64,000 nt of DNA. It comes from Dipteronia dyeriana (taxonomy: Eukaryota > Streptophyta > Magnoliopsida > Sapindales > Sapindaceae). The stretch is from contig CM065297.1 in NCBI GenBank assembly GCA_032871835.1, forward strand, positions 22,201,098 to 22,265,097. The letters are read 5' to 3'. The notes below the pieces were generated by a model that saw nothing but the letters and a program-made list of their open reading frames with translations, was not told the origin of the DNA and searched no databases. A program made the translations under genes and the position numbers. Every line of letters begins with the position of its first letter. Within the stretch, counting starts at the first letter, position 1. Positions 12,752-57,617 of this stretch are shown piece after piece.

Positions 12752-14294
12752 TGAAAGTTCCCTAAAATGTGTGTCAATAAAATGTGTGTCAATAAACTAG
12801 AGGGGGGTGAATAGGTTTTAATCGAATCAATTACCGATTTTTCGATTAATCAATATTAACACAAATTACCCCGAGTAAACAAGCATTCAAAAAATCAATT
12901 ATGCTTAAAACAATTACATCACAAAATATTTACGTAGATACCCTCCAAATGGGAAAAATTACGGACTGATATGTGCGCCACACTAGATCCTCAAATCCAC
13001 TATTGAATGAAAGTTTATAACCTAGGTTGACCTCCTGTCACACCCTCCAGTTACTAACCCTTTCACTCTACCCAACGAACCTTAATAGTGATTCTTGATC
13101 TATTTGCTTGTGCACTAACCACTTAATCACAAGACTTAACCTCAATGAAGAGTCAAACACAACCTAAGTGAATATACAAGAATATTCAATATGCTAAAAT
13201 GCTAGGTCAAGACATTCATGCTTATCTAGGATTAATAATGACAATTAAAACATATCCTAGATATCAATGTTCTAAATGCAAAGGCAAGAAGAATTAGCTA
13301 GAAGGGTAAAATCGTCCTAAATGCTACCTATCATGAAAGCATATATCTCAACCAACAAACAACTACTCAAGCATGTTATAAATGCAATAAAACTTAAAAG
13401 CATACAATCAATGAGTAATTAATGCTATTTCTAGGTAAACATAGCCTAGTAATGAAACAATTCATTATAGGTCATGTAGAGATTACCTAGTCAATGAAAA
13501 CAAGAAGAATCCATGCTTGGAAGATGCAAGAAGATGTTAGATGCTCATGGATTGATGGTTGGATGAGCCAAGATAAGTTCTTGGAAGCTCTCTCTCTCTA
13601 GGAGTTACTTTCCCTTTCAAAGATATGGTTTTTGGCTCATAAAAACGAATGAAGAAGAAGATGATACATAAATATGAGCTCTAAATGAAACTATGTCGTT
13701 TTGACAAAAACGCCCAGAAAATTGCCTTGTGCACTGGTCGAGTAGCGCACGACATGCGACAACCCACTGGACAAGTTATGCTGGTGAGGTGCGCATGACG
13801 ACCAATGCACCACCAGTGACAAGCTACTGGAAAGCTGCGCTGGTGTTGGCACGCATGACGACCAACGCACTACCAGCGACACACCACTGGAAAGTTACGC
13901 TGGTGTTGGCGCTGGTGAGGGTGCTACTCAAGTGGCGCACGACTCACTTCCTTCACACTCATACATAAATTATGCTAGAGAAAAGAGGTGAAGGGAATGC
14001 ATCCTAATGTCTAACATGACATGGCATTTTAATCACAAGATGCAATCAATTTAATCAAGCAAGAAATAACAAAATTAGGCACACAACAAGACAATTAAGC
14101 ACACATGCAAAGTGATCAAAAACATGCATGAGAGTAAGTGTGTGCCCTAAACCTCTTCAATGAAGGTTAAGCAAGTGAATTTACCTTTGAAGCTTGAAAG
14201 AGCACTTGAGCAATGATGACCTAACTGCCCTTATACATTAAACCCCAAATGTGGTTGTTAACAGAATGAGCCAATCAAAACTGAGGAACTTACA
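12752..14294 (-). repeat. copia LTR (3' LTR, 1543 bp)
   Basis: Starts TGAAAGTTCC and ends GGAACTTACA (plus strand). It is highly similar to 17701-19241 with scattered substitutions and a short 'gtgtgtcaataaa' duplication near its start. Inside (about 13727-13925) is an imperfect tandem repeat of about 60 bp with 'gcgcatgacgacca' and 'ccactggaaagtt'. The small frame over this repeat (13729-13968) is not a gene. Confidence 0.92.
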
Positions 14295-17700: not shown

Positions 17701-19241
17701 TGAAAGTTCCTTAAAACGTGTGTGTCAATAACCTAGAGGGGGGGGGGGGGGTGAATAGGTTTTAATCGATTCAATTACCGATTTTTCGATTAATCAATAT
17801 TAACACAAATTACCCCGAGTAAACAAGCATTCAAAAAATCAATTATGCTTAAAACAATAACAACACAAAATATTTACGTGGAAACCCTCCAAATGGGAAA
17901 AATCATGGGCTGATATGTGCGCCACACTATATCCTCAAATCCACTATTGAATTAAAGTTTACAACCTAGGTTGACCTCCTGTCACACCCTTCAGTTACTA
18001 ACCCTTTCACTCTACCCAACAGGCCTTAATAGTGATTCTTGATCTATTTGCTTGTGCACTAACCACTTAGTCACAAGACTTAACCTCAATAAAGAGTCAA
18101 ATACAACCTAAGTGAATATGCAAGAATATTCAATATGTAAAAATGCTAGGTCAAGACATTCATGCTTATCTAGGATTAATAATGACAATTAAAACAAATC
18201 CTAGATATCAATGTTCTAAATGCAAAGGCAAGAAGAATTAGCTAGAAGGATAAAATCATCCTAAATGCTAGCTATCATGAAAGCATACATCTCAACCAAC
18301 AAACAACTACTCAAGCATGTTATAAATGCAATAAAACTTAAAAGCATACAATCAATGAGTAATTAATGCTATTTCTAGGTAAACATAGCCTAGTAATGAA
18401 ATAATTAATTCTAGGTCATGTAGAGATTACATAGTCAATGAAAACAAGAAGAATCAATGCTTGGAAGATGCAAGAAGATGTTAGATGCTCATGGATTGAT
18501 GGTTGGATGAGACAAGATGAGTTCTTGGAAGCTCTCTCCCTCTCTCTAGGAGTTACTTTCCCTCTCAAAGATATGATTTTTGGCTCATAAAAATGAATAA
18601 AGGAGAAGACGATACATAAATATGAGCCCTAAATGAAACTATGTCGTTTTGATAAAAATGCCCAGAAAATTGCCTTGTGCGCTGGTCGAGTAGGGCACGA
18701 ACAACGACAACCCACTGGAAAAATTACACTGGTGAGTTGCGCATGACGACCAGCGCACCTCCAGCGACAAGCTACTGGAAAGTTACACTGGTGTTAGCGT
18801 GCATGACGACCAGCGCACCACCAGCGACACACCACTGGAAAGTTACGCTGGTGTTGGCGCTGGTTAAGGCGCTACTCGAGTGGCGTACGACTCACTTCCT
18901 TCACACTCATACACAAATTATGCTAGAGAAAAGAGGTGAAGGGAATGCATCCTAATGCCTAACATGACATGGCATTTTAATCACAAGATGCAATCAATTT
19001 AATCAAGCAAGAAATAACAAAATCAGGCACACAACAAGACAATTAAGCATATATGCAAAGTGATCAAAAACATGCATGAGAGTGAGTGTGTGCGCTAAAC
19101 CTCTTCAATGAAGGTTAACAAGTGAATTTACCTTTGAAGCTTGAAAGAGCACTTGAGCAATGATGACCTAACTGCCCTTACACATTAAACCCCAAATGTG
19201 GTTGTCAACGAAATGAGCCAATCAAAACCGAGGAACTTATA
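17701..19241 (-). repeat. copia LTR (5' LTR, 1541 bp)
   Basis: Partner of 12752-14294. It begins TGAAAGTTCC and ends GGAACTTATA, where the final CA has mutated to TA. It contains a G run (about 17741-17752) longer than in its partner, and the same internal 60-bp tandem repeat at about 18676-18870. Confidence 0.92.
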
Positions 19242-24803: not shown

Positions 24804-26836
24804 AGCACTTTTTGGACGTAACATTTCAATATTGTCACTGCTTTAATAACTTATGTTTAAAATGAACTTATTATGGTGAACGGACAAAAATACCCTCAAT
24901 AGTTGTTCCACATCAGATTTCTTTCATTCATTTTATAGTGATAGTTTTGAAGTAAAGAGAGAAAATCTCGTTGAAACTCAGACAATCACTCGAACGTCGA
25001 CAGAGTGACGCTACGCAGATGCATTCGGGGTCCAGCTCCCCGCCAAGCTCGCGGTGGTCGAGCTGCCAGGTTAGCTGGAGGGGCAGAGGCCAGCGCCCCG
25101 AGAGCTTTTTTTTCTGGTCAGTACTTAATATACTCGAAATATAATTACAAAAGGCTCAGAGCCTTTAGTAAAAGTCTCGAACCTAGTAAAAAAAAAGCCC
25201 GGATACTTGATAAAAATACTCGAACCCATTAAAAAAAAGCTCAGGCACTTGGCAAAAAAGCTCGAACCCTTACAAAAAAAGGTCGAGCTTTTTTTTAATG
25301 GGTTCGAGTTTTTTGCTAATTGCCTGAGCTTTTTTTTTTACTAAGTGCTTGAACTTTTATTTTAACTTGACAAAAAGGCTCGAACACAGTAAAAAAAGCT
25401 CGGGAACTTAACAAAAAAGATCGAACACATAAAAAAAAAAAAGCTCGGACACGTGACAAAAAAGCTCGAACTCTTACCAAAAAAGCTCGAGCTTTTTTTT
25501 AATGGGTTCGAGTTTTTGTGTCAAGTGCCCGAGCTTTTTTTTACTGGATTCGAGTTTTTTTACCTAGTGCCCGATTTTTTTTTTTAACTTGGCAAAAAGG
25601 CTCGAACCAAGTAAAAAAAAGCTCGGGCACTTGGTAAAAAAACTAGAACCTATTAAAAAAAAAGCTCGAAAACTTGGTAAAAAAGCTCAGACACTTGGTA
25701 AAAAAGCTCGAATCCATTAAAAATAAAAGCTCCACCTTTTTTGCCAAGTGACCAAGTTTTTTTTACTGGGTTCGAGCTTTTTTATCAAGTGTCCGAGCTT
25801 TTTTTTAACTTGACAAAAAGATTCGAACCAAGTAAAAAAAAGCTCGGGCACTTGGTAAAAAAGCTCGAACCCTTTTAAAAAAAGCTCGGGCACTTGGTAA
25901 AAAAGCTCGAACCCATTAAAAATAAAAAGCTCGAACCCATTTAAAAAAAGCTCGGACACTTGGTAAAAAAGTTCGAATCCATTAAAACTAAAAGCTCGAG
26001 CTTTTTTGCCAAGTGCTTGAGCTTTTCTTTACTGGGTTCGAGCTTTTTTACCAGGTGCCCGAGCTTTTTTTTAACTTGGCAAAAAGGCTTGAACCAAGTA
26101 AAAAAAGCTCGGGCACTTGGCAAAAATGTTCGAACTCTTTTAAAAAAAGCTCGGGCACTTGGTAAAAAAGCTTGAGCCCATTAAAAAAAAGCTCGAGCTT
26201 TTTTGGTAAGGGTTCGAGCTTTTTTGTCAAGTGCCCAAGTTTTTTTTATTGGGTTCAAGCTTTTTTACCAAGGGTTAGAAATTTATTTGGGCCATATCAA
26301 AAAAGCTCGGAGACAAATCTCAGACATTAACTTAACAAAAAAGCTCAAAGACAAATAAAAAAAGCTCGGAGGTGTATAAAAAAATCTCGAAATCATATCA
26401 AAATAGCTCGGACACTAATCAAAAAATCTCGGAGTAATTTAAAAAAGTCTCGAACAGAATCTGGAGACTAAATGTTCATATATGTTCATACAAAGATTGA
26501 GACAACAAATCATAACGAATGAATATATTGTTAAACCACACAGAAATATATGATAATATATAAACGAAGTTCACAAATATATGTTATTTTTTGTGCGCAG
26601 AATCTAGAGAGAGACAAGTTTTTTGGAGAGAGAGATGAGTTGTAGATCGATTTTCAGATAAATATTTTGAAGAGAGAGAAAGATGGGAGTTATCGTTTTC
26701 AAAGCGTAGATAGAAGCACAATGAGAATAAAAAATAGATTATTTAAGGGCAATTTGGGTAGTTCACCATAATAGGTGTCTTTTAAACTTAAGTTATTAAA
26801 ACGGTGACATTATTACAACACAAAAAAAAAGGTGAC
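24804..26836. mobile_element. Long-TIR element carrying an alternating inverted minisatellite
   Basis: The left end (24804-24895) and right end (about 26745-26836) are inverted repeats of about 90 bp. Both contain the patterns 'tttaataactta', 'gtttaaaa' and 'ttatggtgaac' when read inward. Next to the left end is a unique block (24896-25120) with a GC-rich section, then 1.3 kb of 'agctcg' minisatellite. There is no transposase, so the element is non-autonomous. A truncated relative sits at 10513-11481. The superfamily is undetermined. Confidence 0.8.
25140..26450. repeat. 'agctcg' minisatellite in alternating orientation
   Basis: The unit is about 40 bp: AAAAAAGCTCGGGCACTTGG followed by a TAAAAAAGCTCGAACCCATT-type half. 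Forward blocks alternate with inverted blocks, which read GGGTTCGAGC...CAAGTGCCCGAGC. Inverted blocks begin near 25283, 25490, 25733, 25998 and 26197. Several junctions are exact palindromes of the type AAAAGCTCGAGCTTTT. Long frames across it (25717-26230) are artefacts of the repeat. Confidence 0.9.
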
Positions 26837-27220
26837 ATATCTCATCATTTCCACATCACCACTCCATGGTAATTTTCATTTATGCTTATACGTATACACA
26901 AATATCCCTCCAATTTTAGTAAACAAAAGCTTCAAAACAGGGAGATAATTGTAAATTAATAATAATAAAGAGCATACTATATAATAGGGTAAATATCATT
27001 TTAATCCCTGTGATTTACCCTATTATCCATTTCGATCCTTGTAGTTTCAGTATTAGCCCGTTTAATCCTTCTGTGACGGTTTCTGTTAAAATCAGACCAT
27101 CTGACATAATCAGATGGTCAAATGACTGTTATACCCCTACTAAATGAGTTGTCTGTTGGAAAGACAATTAAAGCCTCAAAAGTAACCGTTGTAAACAACA
27201 ACTACTTTTTTTCTTTCTCT

Positions 27221-27230
27221 TATAAAAAGG
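27221..27230 (+). promoter_or_regulatory. TATA box of the MULE second gene
   Basis: TATAAAAAGG follows a pyrimidine-rich stretch 235 bp inside the left TIR and 356 bp before the ATG at 27586. This is a good match to a plant TATA box. The leader between is rich in CACA and CAACAC repeats. Confidence 0.55.
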
Positions 27231-27585
27231 CATGCACCCTGCTACACTACAACCTCATCTTACATTTTCTTCCACACGCAGCACAAACCCTTCATACAAA
27301 AGCCTTCATACATTTGCAACCTATTCAACACACAGCACATGCTCCAACACTCATATTATACAAACACATAAACCCTTTTTACATTTTCTTCCACAACACA
27401 CATCACACTCATATTTTATGCCACAACACCTGCTCCAACACTCATATTTTATGCCACAGCACACATATACAAACTCAACAAAGAAAAACAATATCAACAA
27501 ATATATATGTCAACCAACCACAACAACCACATCTACCACAGAAATATCAAGCAAACACAGACAACATAAATCAATAGCAGCAGCC

Positions 27586-28077
27586 ATGGAGACATCATCA
27601 AGCTCAACAATGGCTATCAATGGCGGGATAATCAAATTCAAAAACCAAAAATGCTTATGTGGGATTAAAGCCGCTGTGAAGATATCTGAATCTCAAAAAA
27701 ATCCATAGAAATTGTATTTTTTCTGCGAGAGAGGAAAATCTAATTTCTTTAGATTTTGGGATCCTGACATTGAAGAATTTAACCAAACTGAATTCGTAGG
27801 AAGCAATTCACAAAGGTATGATGATAGAGAACATTTTCAGCTTCAACAAGAAATGACAAGTGTAATGCAGAAGTTGGAACTATTATGGCAAAGGGTGCAG
27901 CACCTAGAAAGCTTACATTTAAGGACGCATAATTTGGAAAATAACATTCATGGGAGAATGCAAAACCTAGAGTCTAGACAAGGGGGGCAAAGGCTAACGT
28001 GGGTAGTTAACATAGTGTTGTTTGGTGTAACAATGACAGTGTTTGTACTTAGTCTAACAAACAATCATGGAATGTAA
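27586..28077 (+). pseudogene. GRF-type zinc-finger protein with coiled coil and C-terminal TM segment, inside a MULE
   Basis: The frame has 164 codons including stop, interrupted once by TAG at codon 41. Residues about 23-62 show the GRF zinc-finger pattern: C-L-C-G, then K-N-P, then YFFC, then F-F-R-F-W-D. The fourth zinc ligand reads Ser instead of Cys (GKSNFF). A heptad-like helix follows (QLQQEMTSVMQKLELLWQRV), and the end is hydrophobic (VVNIVLFGVTMTVFVLSL), a likely membrane anchor. Plants have many small GRF-finger proteins with this layout. GRF fingers bind single-stranded DNA in some proteins; the role here is unknown. Without the stop and the Cys-to-Ser change it would be a normal family member. 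Confidence 0.8.
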
Positions 28078-28396
28078 TAATTAGTAAAGCATAAGCATAA
28101 AGAAAAAGTAGATAGAGTTCATAATACCCTTAGATTGCATAACAAAAGTGCAGCCAATTACTGTCAAATTTCTACATGGTCTGTGTGCTAGCACAAACAA
28201 AAAACAAATTTCAGCATATATAATGGTTTACTAACCATAATTAAAAAATGCTAGCAAGAAGACCACACATTTAAACAAAAAAAAACATGTGAAGATGAAC
28301 AAAATAAAGTAGAGTTCATAATTACGAATTCAAAATAAAACTAAATTTTGTTAACCAAGAACTGCCAGTGTTGCACTTTCAACTGCCAGTCTTCCA

Positions 28397-31362
28397 TCAG
28401 TCCAAGTCCTTTTGTGTTTGAGTCTGGGTTGGTGGTGGCTGTGAAGATGAACCTTCAAGTGCTGATTGTTGTTGGATTGGGTGATGTGAAGATGAGGTTG
28501 TAGTGGAGGTTTCATTAGTCTGTAAAAAGAATTTGCAAAGGAAAAAGAAAAAAATTAATTAGATAAAGAAGTTTGAAAAATGAATGTAGAAGAAATATAT
28601 TCAGTTTTGTTGTTTTGACATACCTTGTTTTTGCATGTTCTTTTGTTGTGTCTAACTTGGCTGCAAAGTTTGCATGTCACAGTTCCAAACTTTCCTCCTT
28701 TAGGGCCCTCGTCTGGTTCCCTCTTCCTTTGAGTCTTCGGCCTTCCAGGTTGCACAGTGCGAGGTGGTGGATCTATGAGTTCTGTTTGACCTTCAATTAG
28801 TACAGAAGCAGGGACTTCTGGCCACCTCTTTTGATCGGGAATTGGGTGGATCATTCCACCATAAGTTTGCATGTAGGCACTCTTGGTCAAACATTGATGG
28901 ACATATTCACTCACCTTATCCTTCACTGCAGCCTTACCACAATGGTGGCTTATGGAGGCCATTGCATGCCTACAAGGGATCCCGCTCACTTGCCAACTGC
29001 CACACTGACAACTATACTCACCAAGTTTAACAGCATATCCCTTATTTGGACCTAAAAGCTCATACTCCATGTTCCCAGCAGCTATAATTGTTAACACCCT
29101 GCTCTGTTTACTATTCTTTAATATCTTTGCATTAACTTTAGGTGGCAAAACTGAATTCTATTGTTGACACTCTACCTTTCTCTCTTGGAATTTTCTCATA
29201 ACCATCCTCCTAATAAACTCAAGCAACTCTAAGTAAGAAGAAGCTCTATGAGTCCCTATCATGCTATTAAAGGCTTCAGTCATATAGTTGGTAACATGGT
29301 CACACCTAATTACGTGATCATAAGCATACCTAAACCAATGCTTTGGTTCAATTTCTTGCAACCAACTCTTCGCAGCAGGGTTTATGGCACCAATCTCGTC
29401 CATTGTTTCTTTAAAGTCACTAAACATTAGAGCTTCAGCTAGCTCTCCAAAACAGTTTATTGAAATGATCACCCTTGTAGGTTAGTCTAAAGTTGGCATA
29501 TATATGCCTTGCACAATACCTTTCCAAAGGAAAAAAAAAACATAAATATTTTGTACACAAGGTTTTACATTTCAAAACTAGAAGTCTATGTATGATTTGC
29601 TCATAAATGTAAAAAAAATAAATACTAGAATAAAATCTGTTGTCAATTATTAGAAACTACATGTATTAGATTTAAGCTGTCAAAACTTCAGTAAAAAATT
29701 ATGTATGTATGCTAACCAGACAACAGTATCACAAGGTAACAAAATTAAAATTAAATGCACAAATGAGCCACAACTCAACTTAGCAAGACTAATATATATA
29801 TATATATGCAATCAGATCATAAAAGAAATTACCTTCTATTTGGAAAATGCTAATGCAATGCGTGAATGACTCTTTTTTGTCTATCAGACATGAAAGTCAA
29901 GTTTCGGTCTGATGGGTACTTGAGATGAATCTTCAGGTTGTTTAAGAACCATTCCCAACTGGACTGTGTCTCCTTCTTACAAATGCAAACAGCTAGTGGG
30001 AATAATCCACTGTTTGCATCCAATGCCACAGCAGAAAGTAGCACTCCTCCATATGGCCCTTTTAAGTGGCATCCATCCATTCCAATAAAGCCCTGCAGCC
30101 TTCCAGGAAACCTAATTTTTGAGCTTTAAAGCTTAGAAACATCCTATGAAAGGTAGGGTGTGGTTGTTGGGTGGAAATATGAACTGTTGATCCAGGGTTA
30201 CTTTGGTTCACCATGTAAGCATATCTCCTTAATTTAGCAAAAGCTTTAGCATGATCTTTTGCTAACCCCTCTAAAGCTCGTTTCTTGGAATTATACAACC
30301 TTTAAATGTCAACCGAGACCTTATATTTCTCCCTCAACAGATCACTTATCACCTTAATAGAAATACTATGATTGCCCTTCACAAGGTTCTCAAATTTAGA
30401 GGCAATCCACTTGACCTTAGCCTCTTTATTGTTGTAAATCCTATGACATTCATGTATGTAAACTAAAGTTTTTATCTTCAATGTCATTCTATCAAGGAGG
30501 CATGAACCGTGTGCTCTCCAAGGACAACCAGCTTCTTTGCACTTGTAGGCCTGTCTTTGAAGGTCATTTTTAACTCTAATTAAAGTTACCCCTCTTGGAT
30601 TGCATACTCCCTGAATAATTCTTTCATTTGCTCAATATTGTCAAACGTTTGACCTACTTCAAACTTATTATCACCATCCATCATTTTCTTGAATGGTATA
30701 CCTTTCACCAACTTGGCGATCCTAACCTGTGCAGGTTCAAGCTCCGAGTCACTAAAATACTCATCTTTAGACTTCGATTGGTAACCCTCAAATAAATCCA
30801 TGCACTCCTTCATTATGCCATCATCCCCATCAACAGATTCTTCCTCAAATACTAGGACCTTGTCATACTGCCTATTTTATCCCTCATTAGCCTGTCTACC
30901 CTCTCCCTCTCCCTCACCATCCTCACCATCCTTATCATCATCTTTCTCACTATCACCATCATAATTCAACTTATCGGCCTCAAAGTCACACCAACCTAAC
31001 GTTTGGCAACCACCCTGTTGATCCAACACTTCATGTTCTTAATTAGGCCTAGAAGATGACCCTTCTGGAGGACTTGGAACATAACATCTATTTTCTAACT
31101 CAAAAACTATTTTTCATAACCTACGGTCCTCAAACTCCTTAAAAAACTCAATTAACTCACTATCTTTATTCACCTCAACTCTCTCATCACACCAAGGTAA
31201 GTGTATCCAAACAAGGCAATCTTCGTTAGGCACTACATCTTGTCCACTAAGCTCCTCAATTGTTGCACGAATCAAACTAATGAGGCTTATGTGATCAGAA
31301 TCACACTGACCTACATCATCCACCTCATTCCTAAACATCACAGTTATTGTGAAAATATCCAT
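28397..31362 (-). pseudogene. MULE transposase (mudrA-like), degenerate, spliced
   Basis: The order on the minus strand runs as follows. A PB1-like N-terminal domain (31362-31114) comes first, then an acidic region (about 31080-30820) and the MuDR N-terminal domain (30813-30302). The MULE catalytic domain is next (about 30300-29850, with 'MDGCHLKGPYGGVLLSAVAL'; the D of this DGCH-type motif is the first catalytic Asp). The C-terminal half starts with 'RYCARHIYANF' (about 29510), then a SWIM zinc finger (29030-28970, CQCG...CRHA) and a CCHC knuckle (CKLCSQVRHNKRTC). A likely intron is 29832-29520. A second intron, 28623-28520 (GT-AG), leads to a last exon 28519-28397 that is Ser/Gln/Thr-rich and ends in TGA. 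Stops (for example TAG near 29156) and frameshifts show it is inactive. The protein would cut and rejoin DNA at the TIRs. Confidence 0.88.
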
Positions 31363-32560
31363 TTCACCTATGTATAAAAAAAATATGCAATCTAAATTAA
31401 CATATATATTTATAACATATCAAATATATCTGTTAACAGTTTTGTCAAGCCATCAACAAACAATCTCCAAAAGCAGAAAAATCCCAGTTCACAAATACAA
31501 AAATCGAATTACTTGTAGTAAACTCATTTATCAACCACAAACAAAAACAAAAGACACTGACATAATATATCTTTCAAACATTAGAACCATTTATTATTCT
31601 TGTTCTTATATTCTTCTATATACAAGATAATAATAATAATAAAAAACCAAACAAAGCAAACAACATAATAAATTATGTTTTAATTATATTCAAAATTTAG
31701 TTACTCAAGTGATATCAAAACCATAAAAACTTGTTTTGCAAACTTAATAATAATCAACCCAACATAAAATCATATGAAACACTTATAGACAAAAGAAATA
31801 CAAACAAATTCACATCATAAACAGAAAAGAGCATAAATCAACCCTAGATGATTTGAACCCGATAGTTTAAAAAAAAAAGACAATCATTTATTTTTAAAAT
31901 TTTGTTTACTTTCGGTACTAACACACGTAAAACTACTGCAACAACCAAGAATTACACTTCATCGGCTTTCAATAGCAAAACCCCCAATTTCTCATACATT
32001 GTAACCATAGATAGATGAAATCTTTAAAGAATCTAGACACAAACATATTGCATGCAACAAATATCAATCAAAACACACTAAATCATCCTTCATTCTTTCA
32101 ATAACCTAATGCTCAGCAAGCTTCAAATCCTCCTCGCAACAGGTGTTCTTCTACAAGTATTCCTAAAAATGAACGTCTAGTACAAACGAGGTTTCACAAC
32201 ATTTCAAGAAGAACGTGGAAATGACGTGAAAACAGTCAAAGAAGTTGGGTTCTGTAGGGTTTTTGGCGCGAAGCTTCAGACTGTTGTTGTGGTTTCTAAA
32301 GAAAAACGAAACCAAATGAAAATGACAGTGGAAGTGGAACCACACTAGTCAGTGTTTTTATTTTAAAGTTTTATGTGACATGTCAGGGAGATGGATTACA
32401 TCTCAACCTTTCAATTTCTTATTTGTTTTTTATTACCAATTTTTTTAATTTTTTAATTTACAGTTTTGCCATTCAGATAAGAAATTCTAGAAGAATGCAT
32501 GATGCTTTTACAAATTTACCCTCACTTTGTTAACGGAAATTTTTAAAACTCTAGCGAAAT
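31363..32560. other. MULE 5' region of the transposase gene
   Basis: AT-rich DNA between the transposase start and the right TIR. It would hold the transposase promoter. The plus-strand frame at 31349-31630 is not supported. I see no strong TATA box. Confidence 0.4.
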
Positions 32561-32683
32561 TAGACGGCAGGGACTAAAATAAGAATTAATTGAAACCATA
32601 AGGACCTGTATGGCCAATACTGAAACTACGAGGATCGAAATGGATAATAGGGTAAACCACATGCACTAAAATGATATTTACCC
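32560..32683. repeat. right TIR of the MULE
   Basis: Reverse-complemented, it begins GGGTAAATATCATTTTA and contains 'taccctattatccatttc' and 'gtagtttcagtatt', matching the left TIR at 26987-27110. It ends about 1.2 kb before the CSLA9 start codon. Confidence 0.9.
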
Positions 32684-32692
32684 TATTTAATA

Positions 32693-50011: not shown

Positions 50012-52147
50012 TGTTGGAACCCCGTTCACCGGTTACGCAGCGGAATTAGGTTTTAAATTTTTTTATGCAGATCATAATATGTATTTGGGACCAGTGAACT
50101 TGGATCGTAATTATTTTTCAGAACTAATACATACAATATGTATATACAGGAAATTGTAATCAACAAAAATCAGAAGAACATACCAACGTTTGGAGACTCC
50201 TTCACTTTACGTTATGCTCCTGTCTGAACCACTCGATCTTCCTCTCTATCTCCCGGGATTGGTAACTACGTGTGGGCGCATCACGATCTCAGAAACTTGA
50301 ATGGAGGATGTAGAGAAATACTTGAAGAAACTCTTTCTTCTCAATTTGATGTATTGATTTCATGCACACATAAATTGCATCTCATGCAAAATTTATATCA
50401 ACTGATGTGGTTCAATTCTTAAAATCATAATATATATCTAATATATATATTTTTATTTCTCACGCAATTTTTGCTTTGATAACAGATCAAGCATGAAGCA
50501 CCTGATTAAAAATATGCCTTCACATTTTTTTTCCCTTTCTTTTTGCATGTGTATCAGGTAAAAAAAAACAATTTTTTTTTTCAAAAAAACCAAAATCACG
50601 CCTCTGCTCACTTTTATATCACGCCACTACTCCCTTTTATATCAATATATATATATATATATATATATCACTTGTGTGTATCAAGTATCTGCATCCTATG
50701 CAAATTCTTCTTTTGATTAATGTTTTATGTGCACACACCAATTTGCATCCAACACAATCTCTTGTGTTATTGATATATATATCTTTTAATTATATTTTTT
50801 AAATATATATAATATATTAAAAGTGATAATAATAAGTATTTTAAATTGAAACTTAAATTCAAATACATAGATAAATGATTTAGTAAAAATAAAATAATCT
50901 TATTATTTATCTTCCTCTAAATTCATATATCAACTAACACCCTCCAATTAATAGTTAATTAATAATTCATAATTATCGATATAATTAAATAATCTAATTA
51001 TTTAATTAATTTAACTATTAACATTCATTAATTAAATAATCTCATTATTCAATTAATTCCCGAATAAACACATGTCACTTTCGTAACACAACTAATTAGA
51101 CAATCCAATTAATTTACCGTGACCCTTGTTACCTTAATCGATCGGGCTAGCAAGGGGACCTAATGGACCCACAGATTTTGAGCTCCAATAATCCTCGGAA
51201 TAATTAATTAAACTCTTTAATTAATATTCTTTGATTATTAACTCCGGTGTTATTCCACTAAAAACCCGAAGCTGCACTCTCTCAACTGTAGACGCTTTTA
51301 CACAGACCGATACAACTCGGTGTCCATTGGTATAGCTATTACATATGGTGTGATCCTCCACAGTAGTTCATAATTAGAGCTGGGTCATAATATCCGTTAT
51401 ACCCCTCTAATTACATATATCCTTTAAGTACCGTTGATTCTATAATGAACAATAAATCTTATTTCCTTACGGAACTAGGAGAGCGCTCATATTGTCCAAG
51501 CCCCGAATCAACCCTTAAGGGAACTACCATCTACTACTCATAAGAAGGAGTGGATTCCACTATTGTGTACAAACCTTCCCAGCCACAAGTCAAACCGTAA
51601 TCCCAACATACAGAGCATATTGATCGGGAACTGCATCCGACCTCACCCATGGTATATCAAAGACCACGATCTAACCTGAAGGAGTCGATAAGACACTTAG
51701 GATTAAGATCAACCACATATAGCCATCATTAGTTAATATATATGAATCTCATCTGTAAACGGATATTGTTGAGAGATTCATATAGATCATGGCCCAGTCC
51801 TATATGATCACATCATACAAGGTGCCTCCATTCTCATATCTCCATATGAATGGTTCAGAATAGAATCACCGTACATTACGGGATAGACCGCAGCTATAGA
51901 TTAACCACAAATAAAGTACCCAGCTTTATTTTCTATCTATGGATTCTTTAGATTGCACGTCTCTTACTGTATCCATCTATATATGACACTCACATACACA
52001 GTTCGAGATTACATCTGACAATCTTGGATGTTAAATATATGCACAAGTTATAAAATAAACAACACAGCATGAATGAATTGAACTTTTTCTTTTATTTATT
52101 TCATAAATCCATTTACAAATTATATCTTTAGGGCATAAATCCTACCA
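50012..52147 (-). repeat. copia 3' LTR (2136 bp)
   Basis: Plus strand starts TGTTGGAACCCCGTTCACC and ends AATCCTACCA. The minus-strand start has changed from TGTTGG to TGGTAGG. AT-rich, with (TA)n at about 50644-50668. The polypurine tract GCAAGTGGGAGAT adjoins at 52148-52160. Confidence 0.95.
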
Positions 52148-55481: not shown

Positions 55482-57617
55482 TGTTGGAACCCCGTTCACC
55501 GGTTACGTAACGGAATTAGGTTTTAAATTTTTTATACAGATCATAATCTGTATTTGGGACCAGTGAACTTGGATCGTAATTATTTTTCGGAACTAATACA
55601 TACAATATGTATTTATAGGAAATTGTAATCAACAAAAATCAGAAGAACATACCAACGTTTGGAGACTCTTTCATTTTACGTTATGCTCATGTCTGAACCA
55701 CTGGATCTTTCTCGCTATCTCCCGAGATTGGTAACTACGTGTGGGCGCGTCACGATCTCAGGAACTTGAATGGAGGATGTAGAGAAATACTTAAAGAAAC
55801 TTTTTCTTCTCAATTTGGTGTATTGATTTCATGCACACATATATTGCATCTCATGCAAAATTTACATCGACTGATGTGATTCAATTCTTAAAATCAAAAT
55901 ATATATCTAATATATATACTTTTATTTCTCAGGCAATTTTTGTTTTGATAAAAGATCAAGCATGAAGCACCTGATTAAAAATATGCCTTCACATTTTTTT
56001 TTCTTTTCTTTTTGCATGTGTATTAGGTAAAAAAAAAAACAATTTTTTTAAAAAAAAAAAACAAAATCACGCATCTGCTCACTTTTATATCAAATAAAAT
56101 CTATATCATGCACTGCTCACTTATATATATATATATATATATGTATCTAGTATCTGCATCCTATGTAAATTCTTCTTTTGATTAATGTTTTATGTGCACA
56201 CACCAATTTGCATCAAATACAATCTCTTATGTTATTAATTGATATATATATCTTTTAATTATTTTTTTAAAATATATCTAATATAATAAAAGTGATAATA
56301 ATAAGTACTTTAAATTAAAACTTAAATTCAAATACTTAAATAAATGATTTAGTAAAAATAAAATAATCTTATTATTTTATCTTCCCCTAAATCCATATAT
56401 CAACTAACACCCTCCAATTAATAGTTAATTAATAATTCATAATTATCAATATAATTAAATAATCTAATTATTTAATTAATTTAACTATTAACCTTCATTA
56501 ATTAAATAATCTCATTATTCAATTAATTCCCGAATAAACACGTGTCACTTTCGTAACACAACTAATTAGACAATCCAATTAATTTACCGTGACCCTTGTT
56601 ACCTTAATCGATCGGGCTAGTAAGGGGACCTAATGGACCCACAGATTTTGAGCTCCAATAATCCTCAGAATCATTAATTAAACTCTTTAATTAATATTCT
56701 TTGATTATTAACTCCGGTGTTATTCCACTAAAAACCCGAAGCTGCACTCTCTCAACTGTAGACGCTTTTACACAGACCGATACAACTCGGTGTCCATTGA
56801 TATAACTATTACATATGGTGTGATCCTCCACAGTAGTTCATAATTAGAGCTGGGTCATAATATCCGTTATACCCCTCTAATTACATATATCTTTTAAGTA
56901 CCGTTGATTCTATAATGAACAATAAATCTTATTTCCTTACGGAACTATGAGAGCGCTCATATTGTCCAAGCCCCGAATCAACCCTTAAGGGAACTACCAT
57001 CTACTTCTCATAAGAAGGAGTGGATTCCACTACTGTGTACAAACCTTCCCTGCCACAAGTCAAACCGTAATCCCAACATACGGAGCATATTGATCGGGAA
57101 CTGCATCCGACCTCACCCATGGTATATCAAAGACCACGATCTAACTTGAAGGAGTCAATAAGACACTCAGGATTAAGATCACCCACATATAGCCATCATT
57201 AGTTGATATATATGAATCTCATCGGTAAACGGATCTTGTTGAGAGATTCATATAGATCATGGCACAGTCCTATATGATCACATCATACAAGGTGCCTCCA
57301 TTCTCATATCTCCATATGAATGATTCAGGATAGAATCACCGTACATTACGGAATGAACCGCAGCTATAGATTAACCACAAATAAACTACCCTGCTTTATT
57401 TGCTATCTATGGACTCTTTAGATTGCACTTCTCTTACTGTATCCATCCGTATATGACACTTATATACACAGTTCGAGATTACATCTGGTAATCTTGGATG
57501 TTAAATATATGCACAAGTTATAAAATAAACAACACAACATGAATGAATTGAACTTTTTCTTTTATTTATTTCATAAATCCATTTACAAATTACATCTTTA
57601 GGGCATAAACCCCAACA
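55482..57617 (-). repeat. copia 5' LTR (2136 bp)
   Basis: Minus strand starts TGTTGGGGTTTATGCCC and ends GGGGTTCCAACA. Same length as its partner at 50012-52147, with scattered differences concentrated in the AT-rich part near 56030-56290. Confidence 0.95.

What the first reader, a model, noticed from the sequence alone, without database searches (positions are those of the whole stretch)
26987..32683. MULE with a MuDR-like two-gene plan: transposase plus a convergent GRF zinc-finger/TM gene
Seen: long TIRs, one-mismatch 9-bp flanks, a mudrA-like gene from the right TIR and a GRF-finger gene with its own TATA box from the left TIR, pointing at each other. Known: maize MuDR has mudrA and mudrB convergent, but mudrB is not a GRF protein and has been regarded as Zea-specific. 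Inference: a GRF-finger protein with coiled coil and membrane tail may be a recurrent second gene of some eudicot MULEs, an accessory factor in the mudrB position, and could explain why small GRF-finger genes are so numerous in plants. It could instead be a captured host gene.
Basis: partly seen in the sequence, partly recalled or inferred. Interest (0 to 1): 0.82.

Follow-up and report, generated by a model that had tools for sequence, protein, structure and literature searches.

The report
Jumping gene with conserved second gene
In this tree's genome a large family of plant jumping genes (Mutator-like elements) carries, besides the usual enzyme gene, a second small gene for a membrane-tailed zinc-finger protein that has been kept by selection and has evolved in step with the enzyme, so it is probably a working helper rather than a stray passenger.

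Summary
26987-32683 is a MULE with 72-bp TIRs (66/72 identical), 8/9-bp target-site flanks, a mudrA-like transposase (minus strand) and a convergent GRF-finger/coiled-coil/TM ORF (plus strand). Both genes of this copy are broken. In the window's own genome (914 Mb, probably Dipteronia dyeriana) the arrangement is the rule for this transposase clade. Of 50 transposase loci, 41 have a GRF ORF on the 3' side within 8 kb (43 with two at 13-14 kb), all convergent. Of 12 randomly drawn GRF loci outside that set, 10 have a convergent transposase. Across 27 loci transposase and GRF distances correlate at r = 0.82 (0 of 9999 permutations reach it). GRF dN/dS is 0.41 (finger 0.23; frame-shifted control 1.16). 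A more distant transposase clade also carries it (20 of 32), one ORF just passing the Pfam GRF cut-off; among other MULEs 1 of 38 has a detectable one. So this is a resident, co-evolving second MULE gene, not a one-off capture. Its function (nucleic-acid-binding, membrane-tethered accessory factor) is inferred; spread beyond Acer/Dipteronia was not shown. Second MULE genes are known; ten searches of open papers listed no GRF one.

The parts
26978..26986 (.). left target-site duplication TATATAATA (8/9 with the right one)
26987..27058 (+). left TIR, 72 bp, 66/72 identical to the right TIR
27221..27230 (+). TATA box TATAAAAAGG of the GRF gene
   Evidence: read; same motif in 8 of the other 16 fetched elements
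27586..28077 (+). second gene: GRF-type zinc finger, coiled coil and C-terminal TM helix, 163 codons; in-frame TAG at 27706-27708 and Cys to Ser at codon 52 (27739-27741), so this copy is broken
27631..27765 (+). GRF finger region (about residues 16-60); Cys 23, 25, 47 kept, Cys 52 lost
   Evidence: alignment; finger dN/dS 0.23
27994..28050 (+). predicted C-terminal transmembrane helix (about residues 137-155)
   Evidence: hydropathy of relatives; helix in model
28397..31362 (-). mudrA-like transposase gene, convergent with the GRF gene, broken by stops and frameshifts
   Evidence: start and main exons by tblastn of P0015, short last exon and stop read by eye and P0019
28555..29157 (-). transposase C-terminal part with SWIM zinc finger (PF04434, E 9.8e-9)
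29850..30125 (-). MULE transposase domain (PF10551, E 2e-10)
30302..30876 (-). MuDR DNA-binding domain split over two frames (PF03108, E 6.5e-5 and 0.0069, below the curated cut-off)
32612..32683 (-). right TIR
32684..32692 (.). right target-site duplication TATTTAATA

Best explanation
The window holds a decayed copy of a two-gene MULE family, at home in this genome and in related Acer and Dipteronia genomes. Gene A is a mudrA-like transposase. Gene B, read from the other TIR towards gene A, encodes a small protein with a GRF zinc ribbon, a coiled coil and a C-terminal membrane helix. SHOWN: gene B lies inside the TIRs and TSDs where ends were found, is convergent with gene A at most loci of this transposase clade, has diverged together with the transposase, and was under purifying selection, strongest in the finger. 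INFERRED: as NEIL3- and APE2-type GRF fingers bind single-stranded nucleic acid, gene B is an element-encoded accessory factor in the mudrB position. It would bind nucleic acid of the element (transposon ends, excision or integration intermediates), multimerise through the coiled coil and be held by its tail in the nuclear envelope/ER, helping transposition or helping the element escape silencing.
For: Convergent GRF at 17 of the first 20 transposase loci, window included, and at 38 of 50 by coordinates, 0 in another arrangement, 34 of the 38 with 3.3-3.95 kb from start to start. Five more of the 50 were found by reading DNA: 43 of 50, or 41 within 8 kb. 10 of 12 randomly drawn other GRF loci have a convergent transposase; chance expectation for 120 loci is 0.32. 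TIRs with TSD of at least 8/9 in 12 of 17 elements, the GRF match starting 511-624 bp from the left end in those 12. Mantel r 0.82 over 27 loci, 0 of 9999 permutations. dN/dS 0.41 against 1.16 in the +1 frame, finger 0.23. Other species: 6 of 23 locus-tagged GRF genes lie within 3 tags of a transposase, random mean 0.12; gene models that run into the antisense of the partner gene. GRF identity: Pfam cut-off passed by P0143, P0145, P0146 and, barely, by the own-genome L043 ORF; NEIL3 GRF found by sequence (E 8.6e-6 for the whole chain, 0.023 for the best single domain) and as best fold match (prob 0.93, E 0.085). Hydrophobic segment of 19 residues in 23 of 24 relatives examined.
Against: No function was tested. 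The window's own copy is dead, and most copies read carry stops: only 9 of 29 GRF copies aligned have none. Members of the window's GRF type fall below the Pfam GRF cut-off. In the 34 own-genome copies aligned the zinc ligands are not specially kept (Cys 23 and 25 85%, Cys 52 76%, Cys 47 65%, mean of all columns 66%), as expected of decaying copies but no proof of a working finger. The structure models are poor (mean pLDDT 62 and 60), with no fold match at E 0.001. 7 of 50 transposase loci have no GRF found, 2 more have it only at 13-14 kb, and one locus of the second clade has it on the same strand. L031 and L039 are GRF loci without a transposase in the 3.3 kb read. L033 breaks the co-divergence: the nearest transposase relative ranks 24th among GRF relatives.
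Confidence: 0.72

Rival explanations
1. Gene B is an anti-silencing factor of the VANC kind: it counters methylation or RNA-directed silencing of its own element and plays no part in the transposition reaction. (The best explanation leaves this open as a sub-case, so the odds overlap.)
For: TE-encoded anti-silencing proteins are known in Arabidopsis VANDAL MULEs (PMC5735166, abstract). Strong co-divergence with the element fits an element-specific target. Placement near the left TIR promoter fits either role.
Against: No comparison with VANC was made; a membrane tail is unexpected for a protein acting on chromatin, though not impossible.
Confidence: 0.25
2. A host GRF gene was captured once by an ancestral element and is carried as a passenger without a use for the element.
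For: MULEs often capture host genes (stated in PMC6446971, passages). Copies without a nearby transposase exist (L031, L039). Close pairs of copies show dN/dS of 0.63.
Against: Purifying selection at dN/dS 0.41, 0.23 in the finger, against 1.16 in the shifted frame; the transposase of close pairs decays alike (0.70); retention and co-divergence over transposases that differ at up to about 60% of residues; present in two transposase clades. A useless passenger would have decayed.
Confidence: 0.08
3. The GRF gene is an ordinary host gene family and MULEs land next to it, or gene density makes the pairing look regular.
For: Hundreds of GRF loci exist in this genome (204 in the union of two capped lists).
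Against: Fixed order, orientation and distance, inside TIR and TSD limits, rare near other MULE clades of the same genome (1 of 38), chance expectation 0.32 per 120 loci.
Confidence: 0.01
4. Gene B is a self-regulator: the GRF protein, or the convergent transcripts of the two genes, limits transposase expression.
For: Convergent genes with stop codons about 320 bp apart in the window can give overlapping transcripts; retention of a repressor by selection is conceivable.
Against: Selection on the protein sequence, above all the finger, shows that the protein itself matters, not only antisense RNA.
Confidence: 0.12

Closest known systems
maize MuDR (mudrA + mudrB)
   Different: Here the second protein has a GRF finger, a coiled coil and a TM tail.
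Abermu MULEs with ORFR (PMC9168764, passages and sections 15 and 23 read)
   Same: Second ORF in opposite orientation between transposase and 3' TIR in type II elements; Ka/Ks of ORFR 0.39-0.56 reported there.
   Different: ORFR is of unknown kind, is absent from many representatives (17 of the 38 plants of that paper's list have one-ORF elements) and is not alike between distant plants. The GRF gene is present at most loci of its clade and recognisable across two clades.
MULEs with an antisense PMD ORF (groups MUDR, MUDRAVI2, MDR and others in Table 1 of PMC6446971)
   Same: Additional ORF, often antisense to the transposase, frequent in plant MULEs.
   Different: PMD (spelled out as plant mobile domain from memory), not GRF; the main text of that paper holds no 'GRF'.
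VANDAL elements with vanB/vanC
   Same: MULE-borne accessory genes kept with the transposase; VANC is an anti-silencing protein (PMC5735166, abstract).
   Different: No or short degenerate TIRs (stated in PMC6446971); VANC is not known as a GRF-TM protein (recalled).
GRF zinc fingers of NEIL3, APE2, TOP3A
   Same: Zinc-ribbon finger; NEIL3 GRF is the best sequence and fold match. zf-GRF is described as a potential ssDNA-binding domain (PMC10969213, passages).
   Different: Those are domains of large repair enzymes; here a free small protein with coiled coil and membrane tail on a transposon.

Membership tests
Mutator-like element (MULE) | MULE/MuDR transposase domains | tested here: met
   PF10551 and PF04434 above cut-off in the window, PF03108 below it; relative P0015 passes all three
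Mutator-like element (MULE) | terminal inverted repeats with 8-11 bp target-site duplication | tested here: met
   window 66/72 and 8/9; 12 of 17 elements with TSD of at least 8/9, in L016 with weak TIRs
MuDR-type two-gene plan | second gene convergent with the transposase inside the TIRs | tested here: met
   window; 43 of 50 loci in the genome convergent, TIRs around both genes in 12 of 17
MuDR-type two-gene plan | second gene homologous to mudrB | not tested
   no MURB sequence was fetched; the GRF domain makes it unlikely
GRF zinc finger (PF06839) | score above the curated Pfam cut-off | tested here: inconclusive
   met by P0143, P0145, P0146 and own-genome L043 ORF (26.5 against 25.9); not met by the halves of the window ORF or by the P0002-type relatives scanned
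GRF zinc finger (PF06839) | four zinc Cys and the conserved aromatic residues | tested here: met
   C23, C25, W58 invariant and C47, C52 nearly so in the 19 proteins of A5; in the window copy C52 is lost, and 34 own-genome copies keep them at 65-88%
tail-anchored membrane protein | single hydrophobic helix near the C-terminus | tested here: met
   19-residue hydropathy of at least 2.07 in 23 of 24 relatives chosen as full-length, within 20 residues of the C-terminus except in P0005 and P0006; insertion in a membrane not testable here
Pack-MULE / captured host fragment | non-autonomous, host gene fragment, no selection on the captured ORF | tested here: not met
   transposase present; dN/dS 0.41 against control 1.16
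accessory transposition factor | needed for or stimulates transposition | not testable with these tools
   needs an assay

The most novel reading that the evidence does not exclude
Plant MULEs of this clade encode a membrane-anchored GRF protein that binds single-stranded transposition intermediates and tethers the element to the nuclear envelope as an obligatory partner of the transposase, and most small GRF-finger 'host genes' annotated in plants are copies or relics of this transposon gene.
Probability: 0.25. Interest if true: 0.88.

Novelty: new variant of a known kind. Interest (0 to 1): 0.72.

Why it matters
Here is a second gene of a different kind that passes the tests for a functional element gene: fixed position, retention, co-divergence and selection. 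It makes the question 'what do MULE accessory proteins do' testable with a defined fold and a membrane tail. It also warns annotators: in this genome roughly nine in ten GRF genes of this kind appear to be transposon genes (estimate, about 128 of 146), yet public records list the relatives as hypothetical or zinc-finger proteins.

Tried and rejected
Chance inverted repeat: rejected. Stray host gene captured by one copy: rejected. Neutral passenger: rejected. General property of all MULEs in this genome: not supported, other clades 1 of 38, with the caveats that both GRF lists are capped and that a much diverged GRF would be missed by the two queries used.

Leads that gave little: Pfam on the halves of the window GRF ORF and on P0002-type relatives gives no GRF hit; profile A3 against PDB gives no GRF structure; viral contigs gave one 16-residue match, not followed; genome contigs gave none; the two structure models are poor in the finger. 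Locus-tag adjacency with 7 pairs gave only a weak co-divergence signal (r 0.52, p 0.023); a first version (r 0.45, p 0.036) had a frame error in my join of the window transposase and was replaced. A first TIR search by plain local alignment picked AT-rich false pairs in several loci and its script ended in an error after printing; it was replaced, which missed L019, where by eye the output gives 9/9. The counts in this report use alone. Papers: 10 searches; some searches asked for GRF together with transposon or transposase terms, and no listed title or abstract start showed a GRF-bearing MULE. One paper (PMC11734081, on plant NLR proteins) holds both 'GRF-type' and 'MULE transposase' once each; I did not read it.
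Full report
OBSERVATION. The stretch 26987-32683 is bounded by inverted repeats of 72 bp, 66 identical, far above shuffled sequence (score 114 against at most 32 in 200 shuffles), with flanks TATATAATA and TATTTAATA. The minus strand carries a mudrA-like transposase with a MULE domain, a SWIM finger and a weak, frame-split MuDR DNA-binding domain; the plus strand carries a 163-codon ORF from 27586, downstream of TATAAAAAGG. The two converge, with stop codons about 320 bp apart. This copy is dead on both sides: the small ORF has TAG at 27706-27708 and Ser in place of the fourth zinc Cys, and the transposase frame is broken repeatedly.

RELATIVES BY PROTEIN. A search with the small ORF found 14 proteins; the ten with a name are from Acer and Dipteronia, most of them called 'Zinc finger GRF-type' by a source. 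A profile search reached 36, including four more distant proteins P0143-P0146 from contigs of unknown origin, three of which carry the Pfam GRF domain. A transposase search at E 1e-30 gave 115 hits among 7994 scored candidates, led by Acer and Dipteronia. Locus tags give neighbourhood: 6 of 23 tagged GRF genes lie within 3 tags of a transposase in that list, against a random mean of 0.12 and a maximum of 3 in 20,000 draws, taking assumed gene-number ranges; the other 17 are 39 or more tags away. Several public gene models are chimeras: GRF models P0006 and P0007 end in the antisense of the transposase 3' end (E 2.9e-12 and 1.0e-7), and transposase models P0015, P0032 and P0038 end in the antisense of the GRF ORF (E 1.5e-15, 6.4e-25, 3.4e-14). 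That fixes the convergent order at five further loci, in A. yangbiense, A. saccharum and D. dyeriana.

THE WINDOW'S OWN GENOME. It is held (G000, 914,068,332 bases, 78 contigs; window at C3:22201098-22265097). Contig C8 has exactly the length listed for a Dipteronia dyeriana contig, and Ddye_011713 (P0001) matches L016 at 100%, though other contigs differ by some kilobases from the lengths listed; so it is probably that species, by inference. P0015 gave matches merged into 50 transposase loci (54 of 7885 candidates scored, so a lower bound). I read the first 20: 17, window included, have a GRF ORF on the 3' side, convergent; L010, L015 and L025 do not. P0002 gave 152 matches (150 of 469 candidates scored), of which 150 were pasted and merged to 146 GRF loci. 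By coordinates 38 of 50 transposase loci have a convergent GRF within 15 kb on the 3' side, 0 in another arrangement; 34 of the 38 have 3.3-3.95 kb between the two starts, two are at 13-14 kb. Of the 12 without, L024 has one, and four loci read in L042-L045 have a more distant GRF of the P0143/P0145 type. So 43 of 50, or 41 within 8 kb.

FROM THE OTHER SIDE. Combining 38 linked with 10/12 of 108 gives about 128 of 146, an estimate. Chance expectation of any GRF within 6 kb of 120 transposase loci is 0.32.

WHERE IT STOPS. A second transposase clade (query P0045, itself 41% identical to the window transposase) gave 32 rows after I dropped second exons and most rows at loci already in the first list (seven overlap it). 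18 have a convergent GRF within 6 kb, 1 has one on the same strand, 13 have none; two of those 13 do have one on reading (L042, L044), so 20 of 32. MULEs found with the more distant Pistacia query P0092 that are in neither list: 1 of 38 has a GRF match; some of the 38 may be domesticated host genes. The difference from the first list is significant (38/50 against 1/38, Fisher p 3e-13).

ELEMENT ENDS. Of the 17 elements with GRF read in full, a script that looks for paired ends found a TSD of at least 8/9 in 12 (6 of them 9/9); it ranks candidate pairs by TIR and TSD together, so the TSD counts are partly selected, and in L016 the TIR match is weak. In those 12 the GRF match starts 511-624 bp inside the left end (in the window it starts 24 bp inside the ORF) and the transposase 969-1381 bp inside the right end (2252 bp in L028). 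In 5 (L011, L013, L019, L023, L024) the script found no good ends. So the GRF gene moves with the element.

CO-DIVERGENCE AND SELECTION. For 27 loci with both genes, distance matrices correlate at r = 0.82, no permutation of 9999 reaching it (highest 0.54); the nearest transposase relative is among the three nearest GRF relatives in 23 of 27, the worst exception being L033 (rank 24); the trees share many groups. Pairwise dN/dS (Nei-Gojobori) over GRF pairs with dS 0.05-1.5 has median 0.41 (329 pairs from 29 copies); transposase 0.30 (310 pairs). At dS below 0.3 the medians are 0.63 and 0.70, as expected for copies decaying after insertion; at dS 0.6-1.5 GRF is 0.35-0.39 and transposase 0.26-0.31. 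The nine copies without stops give 0.44 (35 pairs). Shifting the frame by one gives 1.16 against 0.41 in 318 pairs, real below control in 309; the finger alone gives 0.23 (224 pairs), the rest 0.58 (319 pairs). Pairs share sequences and are not independent.

WHAT THE PROTEIN IS. N-terminal finger with C-x-C ... C-x4-C and a conserved Trp, a long predicted helix, and a hydrophobic segment near the C-terminus in 23 of 24 relatives that I chose as full-length (of 36 found), P0010 being the exception. The Pfam GRF model passes its cut-off in P0143, P0145, P0146 and in the own-genome ORF of L043 (26.5 against 25.9), not in the window type. In 34 own-genome copies, many of them decayed, the four Cys are kept at 65-85% against a column mean of 66%. 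P0145 matches human NEIL3 GRF domains (E 8.6e-6 for the chain, 0.023 for the best single domain), also the best fold match of a low-confidence model (prob 0.93, E 0.085). GRF fingers of topoisomerase III are described as potential ssDNA binders (PMC10969213, passages). ENA contigs holding such ORFs, mostly 0.6-1.9 kb, may be transcripts; this is inference.

MECHANISM. Shown: a resident, selected, co-evolving second gene. Inferred: nucleic-acid binding by the finger, multimerisation by the coiled coil, membrane anchoring by the tail, hence an accessory factor in transposition or in escape from silencing. I rate a role in the transposition cycle at about 0.5, anti-silencing about 0.25, self-regulation about 0.12, passenger about 0.08; the stated best explanation covers the first and most of the second.

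KNOWN WORK. Second ORFs in MULEs are known: mudrB; mutB; vanB/vanC; PMD ORFs, often antisense (PMC6446971, passages and part 2 of section 6); and ORFR of Abermu, opposite to the transposase (PMC9168764, passages and sections 15 and 23). In what I read of them none is described as GRF. Ten full-text searches of the open library listed no GRF-bearing MULE; subscription papers and Repbase were not searched.

Noticed in passing
G000:C4:59812947-59814312: Five matches to the first ~150 bp of the element lie in a row within 1.4 kb: apparently a tandem array of element ends.
   Followed up: no
L046 (G000:C7:899900-905899): Two GRF genes of different type close together, a P0145-type at C7:901011-901448 and a P0003-type at C7:905036-905494, with transposase matches of both clades nearby: neighbouring or nested elements.
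   Followed up: partly
L031 (G000:C2:35467567-35467989): GRF ORF without stops in the part matched and no transposase in the 3.3 kb downstream: a candidate solo or host-adopted copy.
   Followed up: no
G000:C4:10903382-10906321: The single case of transposase and GRF match on the same strand.
   Followed up: no
public models P0006, P0007, P0015, P0032, P0038: Gene predictions in Acer and Dipteronia fuse one gene of the element with the antisense of the other: annotation artefacts.
   Followed up: yes
window 27331-27360 and 27422-27451: 30-bp repeat (90%) in the leader between TATA box and GRF start.
   Followed up: no
window 25190-26268: Repeat array with a 21-bp period just left of the element, rich in inverted matches.
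   Followed up: no
window 50052-51205 with 55521-56675, and 12802-14292 with 17746-19239: Direct repeats about 5.47 and 4.95 kb apart, 84-97% alike in the pieces listed, probably LTR pairs of retrotransposons.
   Followed up: no
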